From Lactiplantibacillus daoliensis (lineage in GTDB: Bacteria; Bacillota; Bacilli; Lactobacillales; Lactobacillaceae), in assembly GCF_005405005.1 (NCBI RefSeq), contig NZ_BJDH01000008.1, forward strand, positions 1 to 64,000: a DNA stretch of 64,000 nt, read 5' to 3'. The notes beneath the pieces are model-generated. The model made no database searches and had not been told where the DNA came from. It saw nothing but the letters and a program-made list of their open reading frames with translations. The stretch's first letter is position 1, and each line of letters begins with the position of its first letter. The position numbers were made by a program, and so were the translations under genes. Positions 3,001 through 55,290 of this stretch are shown in pieces.

Positions 3001-5777
3001 GTAATAGTTGGCTTGGCATCGACTGGATTAATCGTCAGTGCCGCTGACGTGTAGAGACCAGCGTTAGTATTAGTGGTCAAGCTCTTAAGGTAAGTACGAC
3101 CAGCATCAGTCAACTTGAAATAGTAGGTTCCGGCATCTTTAGGCGTGACATGGGTATCTGAATCTGCTGCATTAACATAGTAGTAGTAATCTGGGTTGTC
3201 AAAACCCGCCTTTTGTGCAGCGGTCGGTGTTGCCCCGAAGCCATCACCAAAGGCCGGTACAGGGAAGCCTATATCTTGGCCGTAATCCCTTGACCAGGAA
3301 ACAAAGGTCGCTAAGCTTGCCACCGCGGCACTGTTAGTCGAAGTCAGGTTGTCCAGTTCTTTTTGGAACGTCGTCATGGTATTGTCCACGTCGGCTAAAG
3401 CACCATACCCGGCTTGACCCTCTTTAAAGATTGTCTCTGGATCCGTGGAATCCTCGGCGGCCTGTAAGTCAGCCTTAGCCGCGGCATTATTCGTTGAAAT
3501 TTGGTCATACATATCATTAACAGAATCCAGCAGCTTCTTGGCCGCATCCTTTTGCTCCTGTGTAATACCTGTTAAGCCGACAAATTTATCATAGATGTCT
3601 TGCGCTTGCTTTTTAGAAGTGTCTGCTTGGGCTTGGTTGTCGGTAGCCTTCTGTAGCCACTCATCAAGCGTGGCCTTCGTTGGAACCAAAATACTTTTAC
3701 TATCCTGAGGAGTCGTGGAATCTGTAGAATCCGTGGCACTGGCATTAGGAACCGTCGACCAAGTGTAGGCTGGCGTGCTACCGTCAGTGATAACTTTGCC
3801 ATCTTCACCGATCGGCGTTGCGTTGAGGGCATCCGTAACAGATTGATTCGTCCCTACCGTTGCATTAGCAGTAACTTTTGTTCCATCAATTGTCTCACCG
3901 GCGGCCGTGTAATAATGTTCAATTGGATTGGCAACATCAGTTTCTGTTGATGGTGTCGTACCCGTGTTAATCTTCACTTTATCCTGGGCAACCGTTTCGC
4001 CGGCTGCGGGAGCATCCAGAACAACGGTCACTGGGGTATAACCAGGTACTTGAATAACGACTGATTTACCGGCAACCGTGGTCACTTGAATGGGATCCAT
4101 GCCAGGAATTGCGTCCCCCGTCACGGAATCAACAGGTGTGACTTCGGCTGTAAAGGCTTGGCTAACAGGAACGTTAAATGTTTGACTAGCATCCCCGGTC
4201 ACTTTGTAACTGTAGTACGCCGCATCAGCAATACTTGAGTCACCGGCGGCATAGTGAACAGTCCCATTGCTGGCAGCGGTATTGTCACCATCGACCAGAT
4301 AGACATTGTTAGTCGTACTTGCAGGGATTACCGTCACCAAGCTAGGATCTAGTGTTGGATCTGCGGCGACTGCTCGTTCCGCCGCTGCTTTCGTGGAGAA
4401 GACATAAATTGTATCCCCAATGTTGGCAGTGACTGGCGTAGTCGTACTTACATCTCCAGCCGCAGTAGCCACTTTGACATTCACTGATGCTGTCTTTGGT
4501 GTGTACGTAAAACTGTCAATTTTGGCAGAGTAATTATTAGTATCTTGCCCAGTAGAAGCAGCAATTGAAATTGAATAGCCTTTTGAGGTGTCAATGTCAG
4601 CAAGTGATCGGGTAAAGGTTTGGTTCTGGATAGTCACGCTTAACATTTTCGTCAAATAGTTATAGGACATCGTGAAATCTACAAGTGGATCGGTCCCCCG
4701 GTTGCTTAAATCAAATGCACTAGCAGCTTTCCAAGCCGTTGCGTCAGTAACCTTTTGAATAACACCGTTGGCATCCGTCGACCGCCAGCCAAAGTAGGCA
4801 CTGTTACCAGGATCAACAACGCCACTTGTATCATCACCACCGTTATAGTGATCATCGTAAACAAAGGCAAAGGCATTCTTCAAACCACCTACTCCTAAAT
4901 TACCACCAGTCAAACCTGTCGTGGCATATTCCGGATCACCAGGTGCAAAAACGATACCGACACCATCGGCCCCGCCTGAAGTTTTGGTCCCAATGCCCAA
5001 GGCGCCAGTCAGGGTAAAATCATGGCCAAAATCAATGTCGTTTTCAAAAGAAACATGGGCAGTTTGGGGACCATCAATATTATGCATTGTATAATCGGTC
5101 ATAGTGTCAGACGTGTAATCATGCCCACCATTAACGGTCAACTGCCAAACACCATTCTCATCAGCCGGCTGTGTTGTCTTATTTTTTGGAAGGTAACCAG
5201 CATCACCATTTTTGTTAAAGTTTTGGACCGTATTCGTAAAGTGGTCCTGAACCTGGCTACCAGACAACGTCACGCCGGAGCCATCCGTCTTGCCAACCTG
5301 AACTGGTTGATCTGGCGTTAACGTTTGATACTGCCCATCAGTCGTAGCATCATTAGTTGTAGTTGTCGTCGGATCGTTAACAGAAAGACTCTCTGGTTCA
5401 GCACTGACAGGCGCTGGCGTATCTGATTGCTTAGCCACGTAAGTCTGCGTTACTGTATCTTGCTTTACTTGCTCTTGACCGGCTTGCTCTTGGTCTTCAC
5501 TTGCTGACGCTGACGTTGTTGCGTCGTTAGTACCAGTTTTAAGTGTCGTCGTCCCTGCCATTTTCGGTGTGGAGGACTGAGAAGCAGTATCCGCAGATGG
5601 TGTTCCTGTCCCCGTGTCCGCATGAGCATTAATTGCCCCAGTACTTTCTGCGATAGTCATTGCAGAAAGACCGACTAATAGCGTCCCAAAAATACGGGTC
5701 TTAACTTTCCAACCCGTATGTCCCTTGTATAAAATGAAATTTTTCTTGATATTTTGATTTGCTACTTTTTGTCTCAA
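1..5777 (-). CDS. Giant secreted adhesin with L-type lectin and MBG repeats (N-terminal part, runs off window)
   Basis: The frame is open from a TTG at 5777 to the window edge, about 1925 residues. An AAGGAGAGGG ribosome site lies just upstream (5783-5792). The N-terminus resembles a KxYKxGKxW signal (FILYKGHTGWK) followed by a hydrophobic stretch and a likely cleavage after AHA. Next come a Thr/Ser-rich linker, an L-type (legume-like) lectin domain at about residues 240-420, a helical, probably coiled-coil stretch at about 695-815, about nine MBG-type beta repeats of about 80-85 residues (about 920-1710), and then at least three copies of a roughly 90-residue repeat carrying WPDDSQTTYTYDP. 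The C-terminus and any sortase motif are outside the window. Such proteins bind mucus or glycans at the cell surface; ligand binding here is inferred from domains only. Confidence 0.85.
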   Translation of the reverse strand, partial: MRQKVANQNIKKNFILYKGHTGWKVKTRIFGTLLVGLSAMTIAESTGAINAHADTGTGTPSADTASQSSTPKMAGTTTLKTGTNDATTSASASEDQEQAGQEQVKQDTVTQTYVAKQSDTPAPVSAEPESLSVNDPTTTTTNDATTDGQYQTLTPDQPVQVGKTDGSGVTLSGSQVQDHFTNTVQNFNKNGDAGYLPKNKTTQPADENGVWQLTVNGGHDYTSDTMTDYTMHNIDGPQTAHVSFENDIDFGHDFTLTGALGIGTKTSGGADGVGIVFAPGDPEYATTGLTGGNLGVGGLKNAFAFVYDDHYNGGDDTSGVVDPGNSAYFGWRSTDANGVIQKVTDATAWKAASAFDLSNRGTDPLVDFTMSYNYLTKMLSVTIQNQTFTRSLADIDTSKGYSISIAASTGQDTNNYSAKIDSFTYTPKTASVNVKVATAAGDVSTTTPVTANIGDTIYVFSTKAAAERAVAADPTLDPSLVTVIPASTTNNVYLVDGDNTAASNGTVHYAAGDSSIADAAYYSYKVTGDASQTFNVPVSQAFTAEVTPVDSVTGDAIPGMDPIQVTTVAGKSVVIQVPGYTPVTVVLDAPAAGETVAQDKVKINTGTTPSTETDVANPIEHYYTAAGETIDGTKVTANATVGTNQSVTDALNATPIGEDGKVITDGSTPAYTWSTVPNASATDSTDSTTPQDSKSILVPTKATLDEWLQKATDNQAQADTSKKQAQDIYDKFVGLTGITQEQKDAAKKLLDSVNDMYDQISTNNAAAKADLQAAEDSTDPETIFKEGQAGYGALADVDNTMTTFQKELDNLTSTNSAAVASLATFVSWSRDYGQDIGFPVPAFGDGFGATPTAAQKAGFDNPDYYYYVNAADSDTHVTPKDAGTYYFKLTDAGRTYLKSLTTNTNAGLYTSAALTINPVDAKPTITNTSLQYGGVDGKLAGVTYDLGTVAGDDDPRLNLTQDDFEIDDVDGNQVAVKDLQAGGTYTIRYSDAAQTALKTDGNYNFTDFGTATLTVTPRGVTLVAADAGKTYGDSTDPALSLKGDPDQALVNGDTVSSLGVNLTRATGKDAGTYAIKGTATGNKNYKVTITDGTFTIDPKAITVQANNVSVDYDGKAHQVDQSGFTIADGDQLATGDTAANLAVTLTPTAETDADTYTISGSSTAKNYKVTVLDGTLTINQKAATVTADAATVGYGDALPTFTVTDSDTGLKTTLDNTDFEIFDNNAKPVVTGPLQAGGDYTIQLTQKAQDNLKTDNPNYKLSFDANKLTVAQREITVHIEDGGKDYGVTNDPALKFTIPATTATGKANGTLVDSDTQDNLGVTLTRETGDNAGTYKITGTAANDGNYNVSIENDGTFTIAQAAGTATVAATSVVYGDNLSSIEVTVNGTTSELDANNFEIVDAEGAVVTAGQLQAGDSYTLQLTDTAKDTLKKANPNYTLNFVAGGLTVTQRPITVQIDNISNVYGQSDPDLTFSIPATTKDGQANGTLVGQDTQDKLGVTLTREPGTDAKAYVISGTAADNTNYAVTIEDGTFTITPAHGGVTIENAKATYGDTSSLQLSAVLGMPTKSEISQNDFEIVNAKGDVFTLDQLPAGNYTIQLNQAAKTRLAQENSNYDFTNPDHTSSFGTGTLTVDPRPVKIQISNRETYAGVANPENVAALTSDSGTLKNGDTLDDLKLTYEEPTNPVVGTYTIDAESANVNYAVKVLPGQLTVLGQDTDSHGTTTTTEKDSNGNVVKIDKQWPDNSHTIYTYDPATGDRTVTEQKDGQTLDQQTLGTDPVTLADGDNTSTTVVLDPTTKQPIFEHDTTETNANGDTTTTKDAEGNVVKVVKKWPDDSQTTYTYDPIGGTQTVTEQKDGQTVDNKTITAKAPEATLSSGDGVKTIVDAPEPGAEPTFKHDTTKTDGDTTTTTDANGNVIKVVKQW

Positions 5778-9421: not shown

Positions 9422-9486
9422 ATCTTTGGTCCTCCTAATTAGTCCATCGTTACACAGGTCAGTCATAACATTGCCGCCTGTCGCGC

Positions 9487-9615
9487 GGTTCGGATGATGC
9501 TGGAACGTGGTGGGCACGTTTGTGAGCCAAAGTGCGGTCTCACAAGCCGGCCTTTTTCTAAGCCGAAAAAATCTCTCGGCTAAGAAAAATTTCACCACTG
9601 AGCATCATCCGAACC
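9487..9615 (+). repeat. Structured repeat family 1, copy A
   Basis: A 15-bp perfect outer stem, GGTTCGGATGATGCT with AGCATCATCCGAACC, encloses an inner helix (GTGGTG/CACCAC) and two hairpins. One has stem TTGTGAG/CTCACAA and a loop beginning AAAGTGC; the other pairs TTCTTAGCCGA-like arms. It pairs with copy B, in inverted orientation 75 bases away. Confidence 0.8.
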
Positions 9616-9690
9616 ACCCTCTCGGCTAAACAGTCGCCGAAACGCAAACTGAGTATCGTCATCAGGAATCTACCCTACTATAGCCGTGAG
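9616..9690 (+). repeat. Spacer between repeat copies A and B, with shared tag
   Basis: Begins with CCTCTCGGCTAAACAGT, almost the same as the sequence that follows copy C at 39020. The rest is unlike the C-D spacer. Confidence 0.55.
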
Positions 9691-9830
9691 GTCAGCGTCT
9701 TTTAGGGCTCAGTGGTGAGATTTGACTTAGTTGACGGTGGTTTCCCGGCGACTTAGTCAAAGGCTGGCTTTCGAGACCGCAATTTGGCTCGAAAACGGCC
9801 CACCACGTTCCAGCCCTAAAATACGCTGAC
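9691..9830 (-). repeat. Structured repeat family 1, copy B (inverted)
   Basis: The outer stem GTCAGCGT..TTTTAGGGCT pairs with AGCCCTAAAATACGCTGAC. In the reverse complement it reads GGAACGTGGTGGGCC and later TCTCACCACTGAGCC, as copy A does. The hairpin stems have other sequences but still pair. Confidence 0.8.
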
Positions 9831-10005
9831 CGGTAAGCGGCAATAAAAACAAGTCCCATCTTTAACCTGTGTTATCTCGTTATTAATTATAAGCCATCTC
9901 ACTTAAAATGCCTAAAAATCAACCTAAACCGGCAATTAAGCTGTGAGGATAAGCGATTTCGGGTATAATTAATGTTTGAAACCGATATTATGAGGTGATC
10001 AAAAT
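9831..10005 (+). other. lipL upstream region
   Basis: AT-rich. A TATAAT at 9964-9969 may be the -10 box for lipL, but no good -35 box is seen. AGGTGAT lies before the TTG start. Confidence 0.35.
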
Positions 10006-15259: not shown

Positions 15260-15712
15260 AACTAAAGATTGGAAGCTGAAAATTCTTAGTCCACGCCAGT
15301 ACATCAATAATCAAGCAATGAAAACCAGTCGATTACTGCCACTTCCGGTTGTTACTGATAACATGCGGACGAGGGACCGGTTCAAGCCTGAGAAACGTCT
15401 TGACCCTCGCCTGGGAGCTTTGCCAAAACCGCAAATCTACCAGACCGTCCGTGGTGTAAGGCCGGCAAAGAACGCCGGTCAAACGCCACCTGCACGTCCG
15501 ATGCTATCAGCAACAACCTCCAGCTAATCAGTGGTTTTGAGGGGATAAATCAGTTATTTATGCTTAGCTCCGTCAGTCAAAATCGCCGTCCCCCACAGCA
15601 CAATGATCTTGACTGACAGAGCGCTGAATTTGGGTAAGTCTCCTTTAGACGTAAAGGTTACTGGTATCACTAAAGTTGTCATATTTTTAATACTTTCAAT
15701 CTTTAGCTATTT
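15260..15712 (+). repeat. Large structured repeat family 2, copy 1 (internal deletion)
   Basis: About 450 bases matching copies at 20569-21110 and, inverted, 35310-35850. Module A has an outer inverted repeat GTTACTGATA..GCGGACG / CGTCCG..TATCAGCAAC and internal hairpins such as GGCCGGC/GCCGGTC. Module B is reduced: about 115 bases present in copy 2 are missing between AGTCAAAATCG and CCGTCCCCCACAGC. Reading frames inside it are not preserved between copies. Confidence 0.8.
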
Positions 15713-20568: not shown

Positions 20569-21110
20569 AACTAAAGGTTGGCAGTTAAAAATTGCCATTT
20601 TGCACGACTGCGTCAACAACCAGATAATGAAAACTAGTCGCTCACTGCCGCTTCCGGTTGTTGCTGATAACATGCGGACGAGGGGATCGGTTCAAGCCTC
20701 AGGAACGTCTTGAACCTCGCCCGGAAGCCTTGCCCAAACCGCAAATCTCCCGACCCGTCCGTGGTGTAAGGCCGGCAAAAAAGCGCCGGTCAAACGCCAC
20801 CTGCACGTCCGATACTATCAGCAACGACCTCCAGCTAATCAGTGATTCTTTCTTATAGATCTGTTAGTTACACTTAGCGGAGCAGTCAAAATCGGTGTGC
20901 AGTGTCGGTAAGATTAGTCGGCGTTCTTAGCTGACTAGTCTTACGGGGCAATTCAAAGACGTGATTTATCGGCTTTGAATTGAGGTGCTAGACCGTACTG
21001 TGGCTGGCGCCGTCCCCCACAGCACACCAATTTTGACTGACGGAGCGCTAAATTTAGGTGAGTCGTTACTGGTACCGCGACATTTTTGACCCTTTCAATT
21101 TTTGCTCAAA
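20569..21110 (+). repeat. Large structured repeat family 2, copy 2 (most complete)
   Basis: Module A (about 20650-20840): outer stem GTTGCTGATA..GCGGACG / CGTCCG..TATCAGCAAC with internal hairpins GGTTCAAG/CTTGAACC and GGCCGGC/GCCGGTC. Module B (about 20890-21045): terminal inverted repeats AGTCAAAATCGGTGTG and CACACCAATTTTGACT around three hairpins, including GTAAGATTAGTC/GACTAGTCTTAC and CAATTCAAAG/CTTTGAATTG. No conserved reading frame. Confidence 0.85.
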
Positions 21111-35309: not shown

Positions 35310-35850
35310 GATCTAATCTAAAGAAAGACTCAAAAACATCACAAATGTCCCAGTATCAGTAACCGGCACATCTTAAAGTAGACTTGCAAAACTCAGCGCT
35401 CCGTCAATCAAAATCAGTGTGCTGTGGGGGGACGGAGCCAGCCAAAGTACGGTCTGGCGCCTCACTTCAAAGCCGAAAAACCACGTCTTTGAAGTGCCCC
35501 GCAAGATTAGTCAGCTGAAAACGCCGACTAATCTTGCTGACACTGCACACCGATTTCGACTGACTCCGCTAAGTGTAACTAACAGATTTATAAAAAGAAC
35601 CACTGATTAGCTTGGAGGTTGTTGCTGATAACATCGGACGTGCAGGTGGCGTTTGACCGGCGTTCCTTTTGCCGGCCTTACACGGACAGTTCGAGAGATT
35701 TGCGGTCTTGGCAAAGCTACAAGACGTTTCTGAGGCTTGAACTGGTCCCTCGTCCGTATCAGCCGGAAGCGGCAGTAATCGACTAGTCTTCACCGCCTGT
35801 TTATTGACGTAGTGGTGCAGACCGGCAATTTTTAACTTTCAACCTTAAGA
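35310..35850 (-). repeat. Large structured repeat family 2, copy 3 (inverted)
   Basis: The reverse complement follows copy 2 over its length. The sequence AGCGCTCCGTC at about 35395 matches the end of copies 1 and 2; the other end near 35850 matches their AACTAAAGGTTG start. Module B is complete. Module A has changes in the hairpins and lacks about 10 bases in one arm. Confidence 0.8.
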
Positions 35851-35870: not shown

Positions 35871-36203
35871 CTAAAGCGATTCCGCTAATAGTTCTAGTGC
35901 TAGGTCAACTTTATCCTGTGGACATTTTTCAATATAGGTAAATTCACGTGCGTTCAAATCAACCGTCCGAATGTGCTCAGTTAGAATACTACCAGTGGTT
36001 TTGGTACGACCATCTAGTGGGATATGGAGCGGGAAAGTTTGCTCACGATTAGAAATAGGTAAAACTCGCGTCAACCGAGAAACTCGATAAAAATCAGGAT
36101 TTGAGATGACGACTGCTGGCCGGAATCCAACCTGTTCATGCCCCATTGACGGACTAAAATTCAACTTAATAATGGCCCCTTGTGGTATCGATACTAATCG
36201 CAT
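35871..36203 (-). CDS. mazF: MazF/PemK-family mRNA interferase toxin
   Basis: 110 residues from ATG 36203 (MRLVSIPQGAIIKLNF), AAGGAG upstream; GTG 36212 abuts that site. The fold is typical: PSMGHEQVGFRPAVVISN (conserved GHEQxGxRPxxV), then LPLDGRTKTTGSIL-like strands and DLNAREF. It cuts mRNA at short motifs when not bound by its antitoxin, which is encoded 50 bases upstream. Cleavage specificity cannot be read. Confidence 0.92.
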   Translation of the reverse strand: MRLVSIPQGAIIKLNFSPSMGHEQVGFRPAVVISNPDFYRVSRLTRVLPISNREQTFPLHIPLDGRTKTTGSILTEHIRTVDLNAREFTYIEKCPQDKVDLALELLAESL

Positions 36204-36253
36204 TTGACGCACTCCTTATTTGATATTTCGGTACGCTCAGTCCTGCTAAAAGC

Positions 36254-36517
36254 TTAAAATTTTTCCTTACCGACAGATGCGCCCCAGTCATATTCTTCAG
36301 GAGCATTCTGCTGCCAATAAGCATCCAAATCAAAGTCATCAAATCGTTGCATTAATTTTGATTTAGGTTGCCCTGGCACGATAATAATTTTTCCATCCTC
36401 AACAGATACCTGCACTGGTGAGTTGATTGGATCAACCAGACCAACCTCCTTTAAGAGAGATTTTTGTAGTCTAACTCCCTGAGAGTTTCCTAATTTAACA
36501 ATTTTTGTGGATACCAT
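36254..36517 (-). CDS. mazE: MazE-family antitoxin (SpoVT/AbrB fold)
   Basis: 87 residues from ATG 36517, GAGGTG upstream. The N-terminal swapped-hairpin DNA-binding domain shows KLGNSQGVRLQKSLLKEVGL; the acidic, flexible C-terminus (DDFDLDAYWQQNAPEEYDW) would wrap the toxin. It should repress its own promoter together with MazF. A TATAAT at 36573-36568 marks the likely promoter. Confidence 0.9.
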   Translation of the reverse strand: MVSTKIVKLGNSQGVRLQKSLLKEVGLVDPINSPVQVSVEDGKIIIVPGQPKSKLMQRFDDFDLDAYWQQNAPEEYDWGASVGKEKF

Positions 36518-36567
36518 CTTTTTCACCTCATCTAAAACCTAGTCTGTAATTTCTCGCCAACTAATCA

Positions 36568-36737: not shown

Positions 36738-38807
36738 TTATGAAATTAATGAACCATTTGGAATATTGTCAGGGACAGTGATCAATTGAACTTCATCACC
36801 ATGCTCCGCTGACAGCAACATGCCTTGGCTTAATTGTCCCATCATCTTACGTGGTTTCAAGTTACCAACAATGACAACTTTTTTACCGATTAAAACTTCC
36901 GGTTCTGGATACCACTTCGCAATACCGGACAGAATTTGGCGATGATCTTCATCACCAGCATCCAACCGGAACTGAAGCAACTTGCTGCTCCCCTTCATCT
37001 TCTGAACGGTCACAACTTCTGCCACCTTGAGTTCAACCTTTTCAAAATCTTCAAAAACCATTTCTGGTTTCGTCAAATTTAGCTCAGTTTCAGCCGGATT
37101 CCAATCGCCTTCAATCGCAGCTTCATGCTTGGCGACTTCAGCCTTGGCGGCAGCGGCCATGGCGGCTCGGCCCTTTTTCTTATCTGATTGTGTCATCTGG
37201 CTCTTCAAGAAATCAACTTCTTTTTCCATGTCTAAACGTGGAAAAATTGGGGTGCCTTTAGCCACGACTTGATTGCCAGCTGGTAAATCGCTCAGCTTTA
37301 AATCAGTCAATGATAAGCTTTCAGGATCTAAGCCTAATTGCGTAAAGATTTCCTTTGGTGCATGTGTCATCACTGGGCTGATCAAGCTCCCAATAACGCG
37401 GAGGCTAGCAGCTAAATGTGCCATGACGCTGGCTAACTTTTCAGTATCCGCAGCATCGTCACTCTTAGCTAACTGCCATGGGGCCGTTTCATCAATGTAC
37501 TTGTTCGTCCGACTGACCAGCTTCCAGATTTCGCTCAAAGCATCAGAAAGGTGCAACTTGTCCATTAAGTCATTGTAATTGGCAATCGTTTCAGCTGCCG
37601 TTTGTTCTAAGTCTGCGTCAAACTCGGTGACACCAGCTTTGAATTCAGGCAACTTGCCAGCTTCATATTTATTGATCATCGCAACAGTTCGGTTCAACAA
37701 GTTCCCCAAATCGTTCGCTAAATCATAGTTCACTTTAGCCACAAAATCTTCCGGTGTAAAGGAACCATCGTTACCATAAGGCATTGCCTTGATTAAGTAA
37801 TAACGTAAGGCATCGAGGCCATAGTGTTCGACGATCGTTTCGGGATAAATCACATTCCCCTTGGATTTCGACATTTTATCATCACTCATGAGTAACCAAC
37901 CGTGACCGAACACTGTTTCAGGCAGTTCTAAGCCCAAGGCATGTAAGAAGATTGGCCAGTAAATCGTATGGAAACGCACGATTTCTTTCCCAACCATTTG
38001 CACATTGGCAGGCCAAAACTTCTTGAACAATTGATCATTATCGTCAGTCGCATAACCCAAAGCCGTAATATAGTTCATCAAGGCGTCGAGCCAAACGTAA
38101 ACAACATGCTTAGGATCGGTCTTAACTGGTACACCCCAAGTGAAACTCGTCCGTGTAACCGCTAAGTCTTCCAGACCAGGCTTGATAAAATTATTGACCA
38201 TTTCATTCATCCGGTTTGCTGGTTGAATGAAGTTTGGATGCGTCTGGTAATAATCTAACAACCAGTCCGCATATTTGCTCATCTTAAAGAAGTAAGATTG
38301 TTCCTTAACGAGTTCAACTTCATGACCACTTGGTGCTTTCCCACCGATCATTTTACCGTCTTTGTCCCGATAAACTTCGGCTAATTGCGTTTCGGTGAAG
38401 TATTCTTCATCATCAACGGAATACCAGCCTTCGTAGTCGCCAAGGTAAATGTCGCCTTGCTTCAATAACCGGTCAAAAATCACTTGCACAGCGTGTTCAT
38501 GATAATCATCGGTCGTCCGAATGAACTTGTCATTGGAAATTTCCAACAATTTCCAAAGTTCCTTGATATCTTTGGCCATGCCATCGACATAACTCTTAGG
38601 ATCAGTATTTAATTTTTCTGCTTTTTCTTCTATCTTTAAGCCGTGTTCATCCGTCCCGGTTAAGAAAAAGACATCATAACCCATGGCCCGTTTGTAGCGC
38701 GCTAAAGTATCACAAGCAATCGTGGTATATGAGTTACCGATGTGTAATTTACCGGAGGGGTAATAAATCGGCGTTGTAATATAATAAGTTGGTTTTGTGT
38801 CTGCCAT
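36738..38807 (-). CDS. metG: Methionine-tRNA ligase
   Basis: 689 residues from ATG 38807 ([17 protein letters not shown]), AAGGGA upstream; the frame extends to 38858 without a ribosome site. Class I motifs are LHIGNSYT (HIGH-like) and KMSKSKG. The alpha-helical anticodon domain has [12 protein letters not shown]-terminal tRNA-binding OB domain (about 585-689: [19 protein letters not shown]) mediates dimerisation. It lacks the Cys4 zinc knuckle, as in the Bacillus type. No T-box is seen upstream; instead a repeat pair lies there. Confidence 0.97.
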
Positions 38808-38843
38808 GACTTTAATTCCCTTCAAACATGTTATTAAATCGCT

Positions 38844-38849
38844 ATTATA
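38844..38849 (-). promoter_or_regulatory. metG -10 box
   Basis: TATAAT on the minus strand, 37 bases before the ATG. No strong -35 box. Confidence 0.4.
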
Positions 38850-38886
38850 ACGTGTCATGCTAGTTAAATTTGTCCGCCTACCGGTC

Positions 38887-39017
38887 GGGGTCTAAAATGC
38901 TGGAACGCCATGGGCCATTTTGAAGCCAAAAAGCGGTCTTCAAAACTGACCTTTGTCTAAGTTCGGGAAAATCCACCCGTACTAAGACAAATTTCATGGC
39001 TGAGCATTTTAGACCCC
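38887..39017 (+). repeat. Structured repeat family 1, copy C
   Basis: Outer stem GGGGTCTAAAATGCT / AGCATTTTAGACCCC, 15 perfect pairs whose sequence mostly differs from copy A. The inner helix is CCATG/CATGG where A has GTGGTG/CACCAC. Hairpin 1 is TTTTGAAG/CTTCAAAA, hairpin 2 TTTGTCT/AGACAAA. Single-stranded motifs GGAACG, GCCAAAAAGCGGTC and TGAGC are kept. Confidence 0.85.
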
Positions 39018-39092
39018 AACCTCTCGGCTAAACTGTTCAAATTCATGAATATCTATTCTCATAAGTGATCAGTTATTTAACGTCGGGCGGTT
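39018..39092 (+). repeat. Spacer between repeat copies C and D, with shared tag
   Basis: Begins AACCTCTCGGCTAAACTGT, matching the start of the A-B spacer. About 75 bases, as in the A-B pair. Confidence 0.6.
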
Positions 39093-39213
39093 CAGAATTG
39101 GCTCAGTGGTGTCATTTATCTTAGTCGCGGTTACTCCGCGGCTTAGATAAAGCCCGGCTTGTGAGACCTCTTTTTGGCTCACAAACGTGGCCACCACGTT
39201 CCAGCCAATTCTG
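39093..39213 (-). repeat. Structured repeat family 1, copy D (inverted)
   Basis: Outer stem CAGAATTGGCT / AGCCAATTCTG. Reverse complement reads GGAACGTGGTGGCC, GTGAGCCAAAAAGAGGTCTCAC and CACTGAGCC, as in copies A-C. Confidence 0.8.
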
Positions 39214-39323
39214 GGCCAACCAGAGTGGCTACAAACATTCAACTCGCACAAAACATTAGTATTAACATTTTTAGTTAAATTCTTTTTTATTGTATCATAC
39301 TTCCACCGTTGCTTAGGAAACGG

Positions 39324-46965: not shown

Positions 46966-47180
46966 AGCGCCCCATTGACTAAACCTAGTCAATTAGGACG
47001 CATTACCGTGGTACCACCTAAATTGCAGAAAATTTTTCTGCCACTCATTACACCGATAAGGGTGGGTTCCCGGTTGACACCAAATCTCCAAAAAGCCAAT
47101 TCAATTGTCCTTCCTAGCTTTCAGCGATGACTAGGTCTCTGTTATTGGACGCCTTACTCTTCTTTTCTTCAACGATTAAT
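46966..47180 (-). promoter_or_regulatory. Trp T-box leader of trpS
   Basis: Contains the T-box core AGGTGGTACCACG (about 47004-47020), then a terminator GCGTCC..TTGACTA / TAGTCAAT..GGGCGC with TTTTTT. Stem I has GTCC/GGAC above an internal loop with the specifier TGG (47098-47096) in GAATTGGC. It senses uncharged tRNA-Trp. Confidence 0.92.
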
Positions 47181-47187
47181 TATGTTC

Positions 47188-54952: not shown

Positions 54953-55290
54953 AAAAGCGTCCTCTGAAAACCAAAATTTGGTTTTCAGAGGACGCTGACG
55001 CGCGGTACCACCTCTTGTGATAACTTTTCAACAACAGTTATCCACTTATCGCGTACGGCTCGTTGATAGCATAGGCTTCATTGAAACGTGTGACTGTCAT
55101 CAGTGACAATCACAGACACTATTCAAGTGATACGCTAGCACGATAATGGGTGCCCCCAGCTAACACTGACTTTTGTTCGTATTAGCCGTTCACAGGTTAC
55201 TTTCATCACTGACCCAAGATCGACTTTCACCATCCGTCGACTCGCTGAACTTGGCACAGTGCCTACTCTCCTGATCGTCACGATTGTTTT
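54953..55290 (-). promoter_or_regulatory. T-box leader of brnQ (probable Val specifier)
   Basis: The T-box core is AGGTGGTACCGCGCG (about 55000-55013). The terminator is GCGTCCTCTGAAAACC / GGTTTTCAGAGGACGC with TTTTTT. Stem I has CAGG/CCTG and CACTG/CAGTG around an internal loop with GAAAGTAACC. By the same spacing as the trpS TGG (GAA, one base, codon), the specifier is GTA (55200-55198), valine. Confidence 0.85.

What the first reader, a model, noticed from the sequence alone, without database searches (positions are those of the whole stretch)
38887..39213. Second convergent pair (C/D) upstream of metG, with the same tag
Copies C and D repeat the A/B layout: same orientation, same spacer length (about 75 bases), and the spacer begins with nearly the same CCTCTCGGCTAAACxGT. 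All four helices differ in sequence from A/B but still pair; for example the inner helix is CCATG/CATGG against GTGGTG/CACCAC. A fixed two-part unit suggests it moves or acts as a pair, like REP doublets mobilised by RAYT transposases, though no such gene is here.
Basis: partly seen in the sequence, partly recalled or inferred. Interest (0 to 1): 0.75.

Follow-up and report, generated by a model that had tools for sequence, protein, structure and literature searches.

The report
Two-armed structured mobile element (MITE)
The paired repeat upstream of metG is one roughly 400-base non-coding jumping element whose two halves each fold into the same elaborate hairpin, and relatives of that hairpin turn up in a quite different jumping element and on their own in other lactobacilli, with no known role.

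Summary
The pair is real, and it is one element: a MITE of about 407 bp (38850-39256) with eroded inverted ends outside both units. Relatives in sister species carry the ends ACGCTTGGTGCTAGTTG; 12 of 18 scanned are flanked by perfect 7-9 bp duplications (swapped flanks: 0 of 306). An IS982-family insertion sequence with these ends exists in one sister species. So the pair moves as a unit, but not by REP/RAYT: the two Y1 transposases are IS200/IS605. A second MITE family with related arms has IS4/ISPepr1-type ends. R1 matches occur in 10 of 40 Lactobacillaceae genera sampled; in 12 of 20 loci fetched from eight of those genomes only one unit was detected. The structure covaries (31 of 46 pairs), also inside insertions shared by species. 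Strand tests are mixed and give no clear support for a one-strand RNA. No Rfam family matches the arms. In 4 of 21 species the element lies between a conserved -10-like motif and metG. MITE identity is firm; the role of the arms is unknown.

The parts
38850..39256 (.). C/D composite: one MITE of 407 bp (family F1, IS982-type ends), upstream of metG
   Evidence: Outer inverted sequences; same size class as F1 copies of sister species, 345-406 bp in a scan limited to 330-460 bp
38850..38863 (+). left end (ACGTGTCATGCTAG, 4 mismatches to ACGCTTGGTGCTAG)
   Evidence: consensus
39243..39256 (-). right end (ATGTTTTGTGCGAG on the - strand, 4 mismatches)
38875..39038 (+). arm C: unit with P1 / CTGGAACG / P2 CCATGG / hairpin P3 with AGCCAAA...CGGTCT / hairpin P4 / CTGAGC / P1' / tag
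   Evidence: R1 169.8 bits; covariation
39070..39229 (-). arm D: same unit, other type (P2 GTGGTGG)
   Evidence: R1 141.4 bits
39020..39033 (+). tag CCTCTCGGCTAAAC = 3' end of arm C; its CGGC faces the GCC at the arm's 5' end
39289..39299 (-). conserved -10-like TATGATACAAT upstream of metG; the element lies between it and metG
   Evidence: present in 21 of 21 genomes; promoter role inferred only, the scan does not list it
36738..38858 (-). metG ORF (likely true start at 38807, read from the sequence)
   Evidence: Pfam tRNA-synt_1g 375 bits
9452..9872 (.). A/B composite, ends ACACAGGT of another kind (no partner transposon sought)
   Evidence: arms 9475-9636 (+) and 9673-9839 (-); ends
35318..35849 (.). 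F2 composite (ISPepr1-type ends); ATCTAAT on both sides
   Evidence: R2 202.6 bits at 35396-35572 (+); right end by pattern; left end, second arm and duplication read by eye in the sequence printed
20571..21105 (.). F2 composite, both arms, eroded right end
   Evidence: R2 200.7 bits at 20874-21048 (-), R1/R2 hits at about 20648-20845 (+)
15262..15706 (.). F2 composite with one arm mostly deleted

Best explanation
C/D is a single non-autonomous DDE transposon (MITE), about 407 bp, family F1. Shown for the family: many copies, inverted ends, 7-9 bp target duplications in sister-species copies, and an IS982-family element with the same ends in one sister species. Inferred: an IS982-type transposase moved it in trans, and both arms travel together because they lie between the same two ends. 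No IS982-family match was found in the own genome, so its copies are probably stranded. Inside, two related structured arms of about 160 nt point towards each other. Arms of the same kind are carried by a second MITE family with IS4/ISPepr1-type ends, and single arms are seen in other genera, so the arm looks like a portable module rather than a by-product of one transposon. Helices keep pairing after insertion. The most likely cause (inferred) is selection on the folded structure in active copies, helped by replication template switching between helix strands, acting on folded DNA or on both strands rather than on one RNA strand. At metG the element was probably present in the common ancestor of four species and lies between a conserved -10-like motif and the gene, so it probably forms most of the metG leader (inferred, transcription not tested).
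For: Ends and duplications: F1 12 of 18 copies with a perfect direct repeat of 7 bp or more, swapped-flank control 0 of 306; F2 12 of 18 end pairs (L192 counted with two right ends, so 12 of 17 elements), control 1 of 306. Partner of F1: two 958 bp elements in G013, transposase 222 bits against cut-off 130 for IS982; a third, decayed IS982-family match of G013 also starts beside an exact F1 end. Partner of F2: 1567 bp, 481.6 bits against cut-off 250 for an IS4-family model; size, ends but for one position, and duplication length fit the ISPepr1 subgroup (table passage of PMC2266710). Arms of F1 and F2: R1 (from F1) finds F2 arms, R2 (from F2) matches 16 of 24 F1 loci given to it; both share AGCCAAA...CGGTCT. 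Covariation: 31 of 46 pairs, 261 cells against 84.7 shuffled. Orthologous arms: 21 kept against 8 broken double changes in 13 comparisons of 46 pairs (my sum). metG: 4 of 21 genomes occupied at this place, motif in 21 of 21.
Against: The C/D copy has eroded ends and no perfect duplication (1 of 5 F1 candidates of the own genome has one; some of the 5 are likely chance end matches). No IS982-family match in the own genome. Only G013 was seen to hold an IS982 element with F1 ends, and duplications around those IS copies were not checked; the IS of L346 has no matching flanks by eye. R2 does not match C/D itself: 8 of 24 F1 loci, L001 among them, gave nothing at E 0.1, and R2 scores the antisense strand of its own arms (about 49 bits) above its F1 matches (at most 40.5), so part of the F1-F2 likeness may be shared hairpin shape. 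One-sided changes in orthologues mostly break pairs (41 against 7 kept), so constraint on any one copy is weak. Transcription was not tested; one search lists no promoter at the motif.
Confidence: 0.82

Rival explanations
1. REP doublet / BIME-like element moved by a RAYT (TnpA-REP) tyrosine transposase.
For: Intergenic, palindromic, paired, multicopy; two Y1_Tnp matches in the genome.
Against: Those are IS200/IS605 (148.8 and 80.2 bits, cut-off 55; REP-associated model 36.8 and 19.6, cut-off 80). Inverted ends and target duplications, not expected of Y1 transposition (recalled). Units are several times REP size.
Confidence: 0.03
2. The arm is a functional structured RNA (cis-regulatory or small RNA) that transposons picked up and spread.
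For: Core letters shared across genera of different base composition (CTGGAACG, AGCC...GGTCT, CTAAG, CTGAGC) while the outer helix differs in sequence; strong covariation; single units. Over all columns G-T pairs outnumber A-C pairs, 361 to 210, and in F2b one-sided changes lean to G-T by eye.
Against: Of those 361 G-T cells, 143 come from one junction column pair and 128 from two others; once columns rich in either are left out the balance turns: 52 G-T to 70 A-C at the 8% limit, 75 to 118 at 15%. Unpaired units of the loci show no orientation to the 5' gene (24 same, 24 opposite of 48; 13 more left out); in other genera it is 3 same, 9 opposite of 12. In a convergent pair any transcript holds one sense and one antisense arm. 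No Rfam match at the arms.
Confidence: 0.2
3. The covariation is mechanical: replication template switching (quasi-palindrome correction) or conversion between copies keeps the helices paired without any function.
For: Double changes are common within orthologous copies while wobble intermediates are rare (21 kept doubles, 7 one-sided kept, 41 one-sided broken, my sums). L134 arm D reads CTTAG where the other three metG copies read CTAAG, which turns the conserved A.A mismatch into a pair. The mechanism is in print (PMC8794818, abstract and start of introduction seen).
Against: The mismatch letters and the bulged T are kept: in the 29 aligned own-genome units A85 and T63 are invariant and A110 is at least 90%; pure correction would erase them.
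Confidence: 0.3
4. The pair is a composite of two separately mobile single-arm elements that inserted side by side.
For: Single arms exist in other genera, and short derivatives with one arm or none exist.
Against: 22 of 22 neighbouring hits are convergent; one target duplication encloses the whole in 12 of 18 F1 copies.
Confidence: 0.04

Closest known systems
MITEs of IS982-family insertion sequences
   Same: No ORF of 80 aa or more between 38859 and 39323, ends shared with an IS982-family element, target duplications, mostly intergenic, many copies.
   Different: Carries two elaborate covarying arms whose relatives occur outside this transposon family. The review passages seen (PMC10969869) describe MITEs as duplications, inverted ends and a core, with stem-loop transcripts, not as paired arms.
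IS4 family, ISPepr1 subgroup (partner of family F2)
   Same: 1559-1567 bp elements; ends fit YT-AA-YTT---A at all positions but the seventh; 7-8 bp duplications.
   Different: F2 itself is a derivative of about 510-570 bp when intact, without a transposase; the IS4 model matches 5 of 21 genomes (4 over cut-off) and not the own one.
bcr1 and other stem-loop repeat families of Firmicutes (Bcr1, Efa-1)
   Same: About 150-170 bp structured repeats; bcr1 has mobile-element traits (table and text passages of PMC2267715 and PMC6542083).
   Different: bcr1 mobility is linked to a TTTAT motif in the passages seen, not to IS982/IS4 ends; convergent two-armed units or a module shared by two transposon families are not mentioned there.
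REP / BIME elements with RAYT transposases
   Same: Palindromic, intergenic, often paired.
   Different: 20-40 bp units (start of the abstract of PMC3733652, listing); no gene over the REP-transposase cut-off among the Y1_Tnp matches; target duplications here.

Membership tests
MITE | terminal inverted repeats | tested here: met
   F1 ACGCTTGGTGCTAGTTG, F2 CTAAAGGTTGAAAG at both ends; eroded at C/D
MITE | target-site duplication on insertion | tested here: met
   12 of 18 F1 and 12 of 18 F2 end pairs, controls 0 and 1 of 306; not seen for the C/D copy itself
MITE | no transposase, many copies | tested here: met
   at least 97 arm hits in the own genome; no ORF of 80 aa or more between 38859 and 39323
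MITE of IS982 | autonomous element with the same ends | tested here: met
   L380: two 958 bp elements, NF033520 222 bits, in G013 only; no match in the own genome
MITE of IS982 | transposition in trans by that transposase | not testable with these tools
   needs a transposition assay
IS4 / ISPepr1 (for F2) | 1500-1600 bp partner, YT-AA-YTT---A ends, 7-8 bp duplications | tested here: met
   1559-1567 bp; position 7 of the ends differs; 7-8 bp for F2; for the IS itself 7 bp by eye in L367 and L368, none in L346
REP/RAYT | 20-40 bp palindrome | tested here: not met
   arms of about 160 nt
REP/RAYT | REP-associated tyrosine transposase in the genome | tested here: not met
   two Y1_Tnp matches, both IS200/IS605, below cut-off for NF047646
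structured regulatory RNA | known Rfam family | tested here: not met
   none at the arms (one search lists one sub-threshold miRNA match in a spacer)
structured regulatory RNA | constant orientation to a gene | tested here: not met
   5' gene same/opposite 24/24 of 48, and 3/9 of 12 in other genera
structured regulatory RNA | G-U tolerated over A-C | tested here: inconclusive
   361 to 210 over all columns, 52 to 70 after leaving out columns rich in either

The most novel reading that the evidence does not exclude
The arm is an old, portable, structured nucleic-acid module of Lactobacillaceae with an activity of its own (a DNA fold or RNA bound by a host protein, for example to protect, activate or regulate the carrier). 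It has been taken up as a convergent pair by at least two unrelated DDE transposon families because it helps the carrier spread or persist, and it also exists as a single free-standing element.
Probability: 0.3. Interest if true: 0.85.

Novelty: new variant of a known kind. Interest (0 to 1): 0.6.

Why it matters
A MITE needs only its ends to move. Here the inside is strongly structured, related insides recur in two unrelated transposon frames, and single units stand in other genera, so something about the fold itself seems to be kept. That makes the question of why non-coding mobile elements fold testable. Insertions shared by species, in which pairing can be followed after insertion, are also a natural test of selection against template switching as the source of covariation, on which RNA discovery relies. 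The family occurs in Lactiplantibacillus and Levilactobacillus species including L. brevis, no Rfam family matches it, and one copy sits in front of metG.

Tried and rejected
RAYT/REP: rejected. Known RNA family: no match at the arms. Phage origin: no match in the phage collection for the 381-base region. Plasmid spread: one 60-base match, in a Levilactobacillus brevis plasmid. Cargo gene between widely spaced arms: 19 gaps were read; most held only short frames of no clear meaning; L462 has an 86-residue frame with no Pfam match. Literature: ten searches of an open-licence library; no listed title or abstract start describes this element. Subscription papers are not held, so an earlier description cannot be excluded. 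Papers: PMC2266710, PMC2267715, PMC6542083, PMC10969869 and PMC2864571, passages only; PMC8794818, abstract and start of the introduction; PMC3733652, start of the abstract in a listing. What is said of Y1 transposition is recalled.

Weak points. One search scored 150 of 760 candidates. Pair counts in sister species (42 convergent pairs, 66 unpaired, of 150 aligned units) come from 80 of 116 loci and from 150 of 169 hits, and partners below threshold are missed. One search took ends with at most 2 (F1), 3 (F2) or 4 (F1, own genome) mismatches and fixed length limits; four full-length F1 copies (L388, L397, L398, L399) fell outside it, of which two had repeats of 7-8 bp. Gene calls are greedy ORFs, and composite limits were set by me. 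One pattern match in a beta-proteobacterial bin (L260) gave no R1 hit and is taken as chance. In one search three further loci matched on one flank only and were not used; comparisons without the own genome or between different arms were not summed.

Full report
What is there. C (38875-39038, +) and D (39070-39229, -) are confirmed and the region folds far better than shuffles. Each unit has an outer helix P1, the junction letters CTGGAACG and CTGAGC, an inner helix P2, a hairpin P3 with a nearly invariant AGCCAAA...CGGTCT loop and bulged T, a hairpin P4 with an A.A mismatch inside CTAAG/CTAAG, and a tail ending in the 'tag'. In an alignment of 29 own-genome units (two of the 31 extracted, shortened copies, were left out) 31 of 46 pairs show changes on both sides: 261 cells against 84.7 in shuffles. 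Sliding the partner by one to three columns drops paired cells from 94% to 33-52%.

One element, not two. All 22 neighbouring hits under 400 bp apart in the own genome are convergent (coordinates). In the C/D subfamily a C-type arm meets a D-type arm; A/B and L018 join two GTGGTG-type arms. Outside the two arms lie inverted ends. In sister species these read ACGCTTGGTGCTAGTTG. Shorter derivatives with one arm or none also have clean repeats (L381 254 bp, L386 137 bp), so arms may not be needed for movement, although deletion after insertion is not excluded. The C/D copy fits this frame at 38850-39256, with 4 mismatches in each end and no clean duplication.

Movers. In G013 the same ends frame two 958 bp elements with a 289-residue transposase of the IS982 family. 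IS982-family matches occur in 16 of 21 genus members, 8 over cut-off, none in the own genome; their ends were checked in G013 only. Many of the 57 weaker hits belong to a second family, F2: 40 F2a arms were found by pattern in the 58 stretches fetched, 35 of them with the partner arm in convergent order. F2 has ends CTAAAGGTTGAAAG and is about 510-570 bp when intact; 12 of 18 end pairs have a perfect repeat of 7-8 bp, control 1 of 306 (L192 counted twice). The same ends frame 1559-1567 bp elements with an IS4-family transposase, which match the ISPepr1 subgroup in size, in the ends but for one position, and in duplication length. The IS4 model matches 5 of 21 genomes, 4 over cut-off, not the own one. 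F2 arms are about 175-190 nt and vary less (mean column identity 90% and 89%, against 70% for F1); in F2b only 7 of 38 predicted pairs show double changes.

A shared module. R1, built from F1 arms, finds F2 arms. R2, built from F2a arms, matches 16 of 24 F1 loci given to it, E 4e-9 to 0.008, but not C/D. R2 also scores the antisense strand of its own arms at about 49 bits, above its F1 matches, so likeness of shape contributes; the shared AGCCAAA...CGGTCT letters speak for descent. In the first relatives search R1 matched 19 of 21 genus members and 0 of 20 genomes of other genera and families. In a wider draw 27 of 121 Lactobacillaceae genomes, in 10 of 40 genera with the own one, have R1 matches at 1e-6. 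Twenty loci were fetched: 19 from seven genomes of six other genera and one from G009 of the own genus. In 12 of the 20 R1 found one unit, in 8 two or more. The core letters persist while P1 differs and pairs nearly perfectly. In one low-GC genus (G079) P1 ends in A and T runs, like a terminator stem. In G009 two units are direct repeats 327 bp apart, so convergence is not universal. Named pattern hits include Lactiplantibacillus nangangensis, songbeiensis, dongliensis, pingfangensis and mudanjiangensis and many Levilactobacillus species. The window's genus is inferred: G013, of the same genus, has a contig of the same length as one of L. nangangensis 381-7.

Pairing after insertion. Six insertions of the own genome have relatives with both flanks matching in G013, G010 or G020, the metG site in all three. 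Over 13 arm comparisons of 46 pairs (my sums): 521 unchanged, 21 changed on both sides and still paired, 8 changed on both sides and unpaired, 7 changed on one side and paired, 41 changed on one side and broken. At 8.9% change per side about 4.7 double changes would be expected if sides were independent; 29 are seen and most keep the pair. The comparisons share rows and rates vary along P1, so this is a guide, not a test. Concerted doubles with few wobble steps fit template switching (PMC8794818); the kept mismatch letters argue for selection as well.

RNA or DNA. Over all columns G-T pairs outnumber A-C pairs, 361 to 210, but 271 of the G-T cells come from three column pairs. Where columns with more than 8% of either are left out the counts are 20:24, 16:28 and 16:18 for C-type, D-type and other rows. 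Unpaired units show no orientation to the 5' gene in the loci (24/24 of 48) and lean to opposite in other genera (3/9 of 12). In the own genome 62 of 64 composites lie between called genes and two inside short called frames; F2 lies between convergent genes in 15 of 39 cases, F1 in 3 of 25, and the window's own intergenic gaps are convergent in 3 of 26. None of this supports a one-strand RNA role clearly; decayed copies weaken the pair-type test.

metG. TATGATACAAT is present upstream of metG in 21 of 21 genus members, 64-181 nt before the gene in the 16 where my start pattern matched. In the own genome, G013, G020 and G010 it lies about 400 nt further away than in G007, whose site is empty, because the element lies between. 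The other loci were judged by reading 900 nt; G014 carries a different pair in the same interval, on the far side of the motif. That the element is transcribed in the metG leader is inferred.

Verdict. This is a well-supported new family of two-armed MITEs. The open part is the arm: one structured module, at least two transposon families, several genera, no known role.

Noticed in passing
window 15262-15706, 20571-21105, 35318-35849: Three F2-family composites not mentioned in the finding; one has lost most of one arm.
   Followed up: partly
L145 (G014) 846-1236 and 3650-4053: Two related composites flank metG in another species, one in the same metG-DUF72 interval where the own genome has C/D.
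   Followed up: partly
L465 (G009) 737-900 and 1064-1227: Arms as direct repeats 327 bp apart; the list shows similar spacings elsewhere in that genome.
   Followed up: no
L462 213-834; L463 635-1303: In another genus two arms converge on a short stretch with a small reading frame: 86 residues without a Pfam match in L462, 39 hydrophobic residues in L463.
   Followed up: partly
L462 and L463 (G079): Outer helix P1 is a long stem with A and T runs at its ends, so the arm sits on top of what looks like a two-way transcription terminator.
   Followed up: no
G018 contig ends: Eight contigs begin within about 50 bases of an F2-type terminal repeat, as expected of a multicopy element that broke the assembly.
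   Followed up: no
window 35871-36526: Two small genes on the - strand that look like a MazE/MazF-type pair (recalled, not searched), next to an F2 composite.
   Followed up: no
window 46991-47181 and 54985-55287: Two T-box leaders.
   Followed up: no
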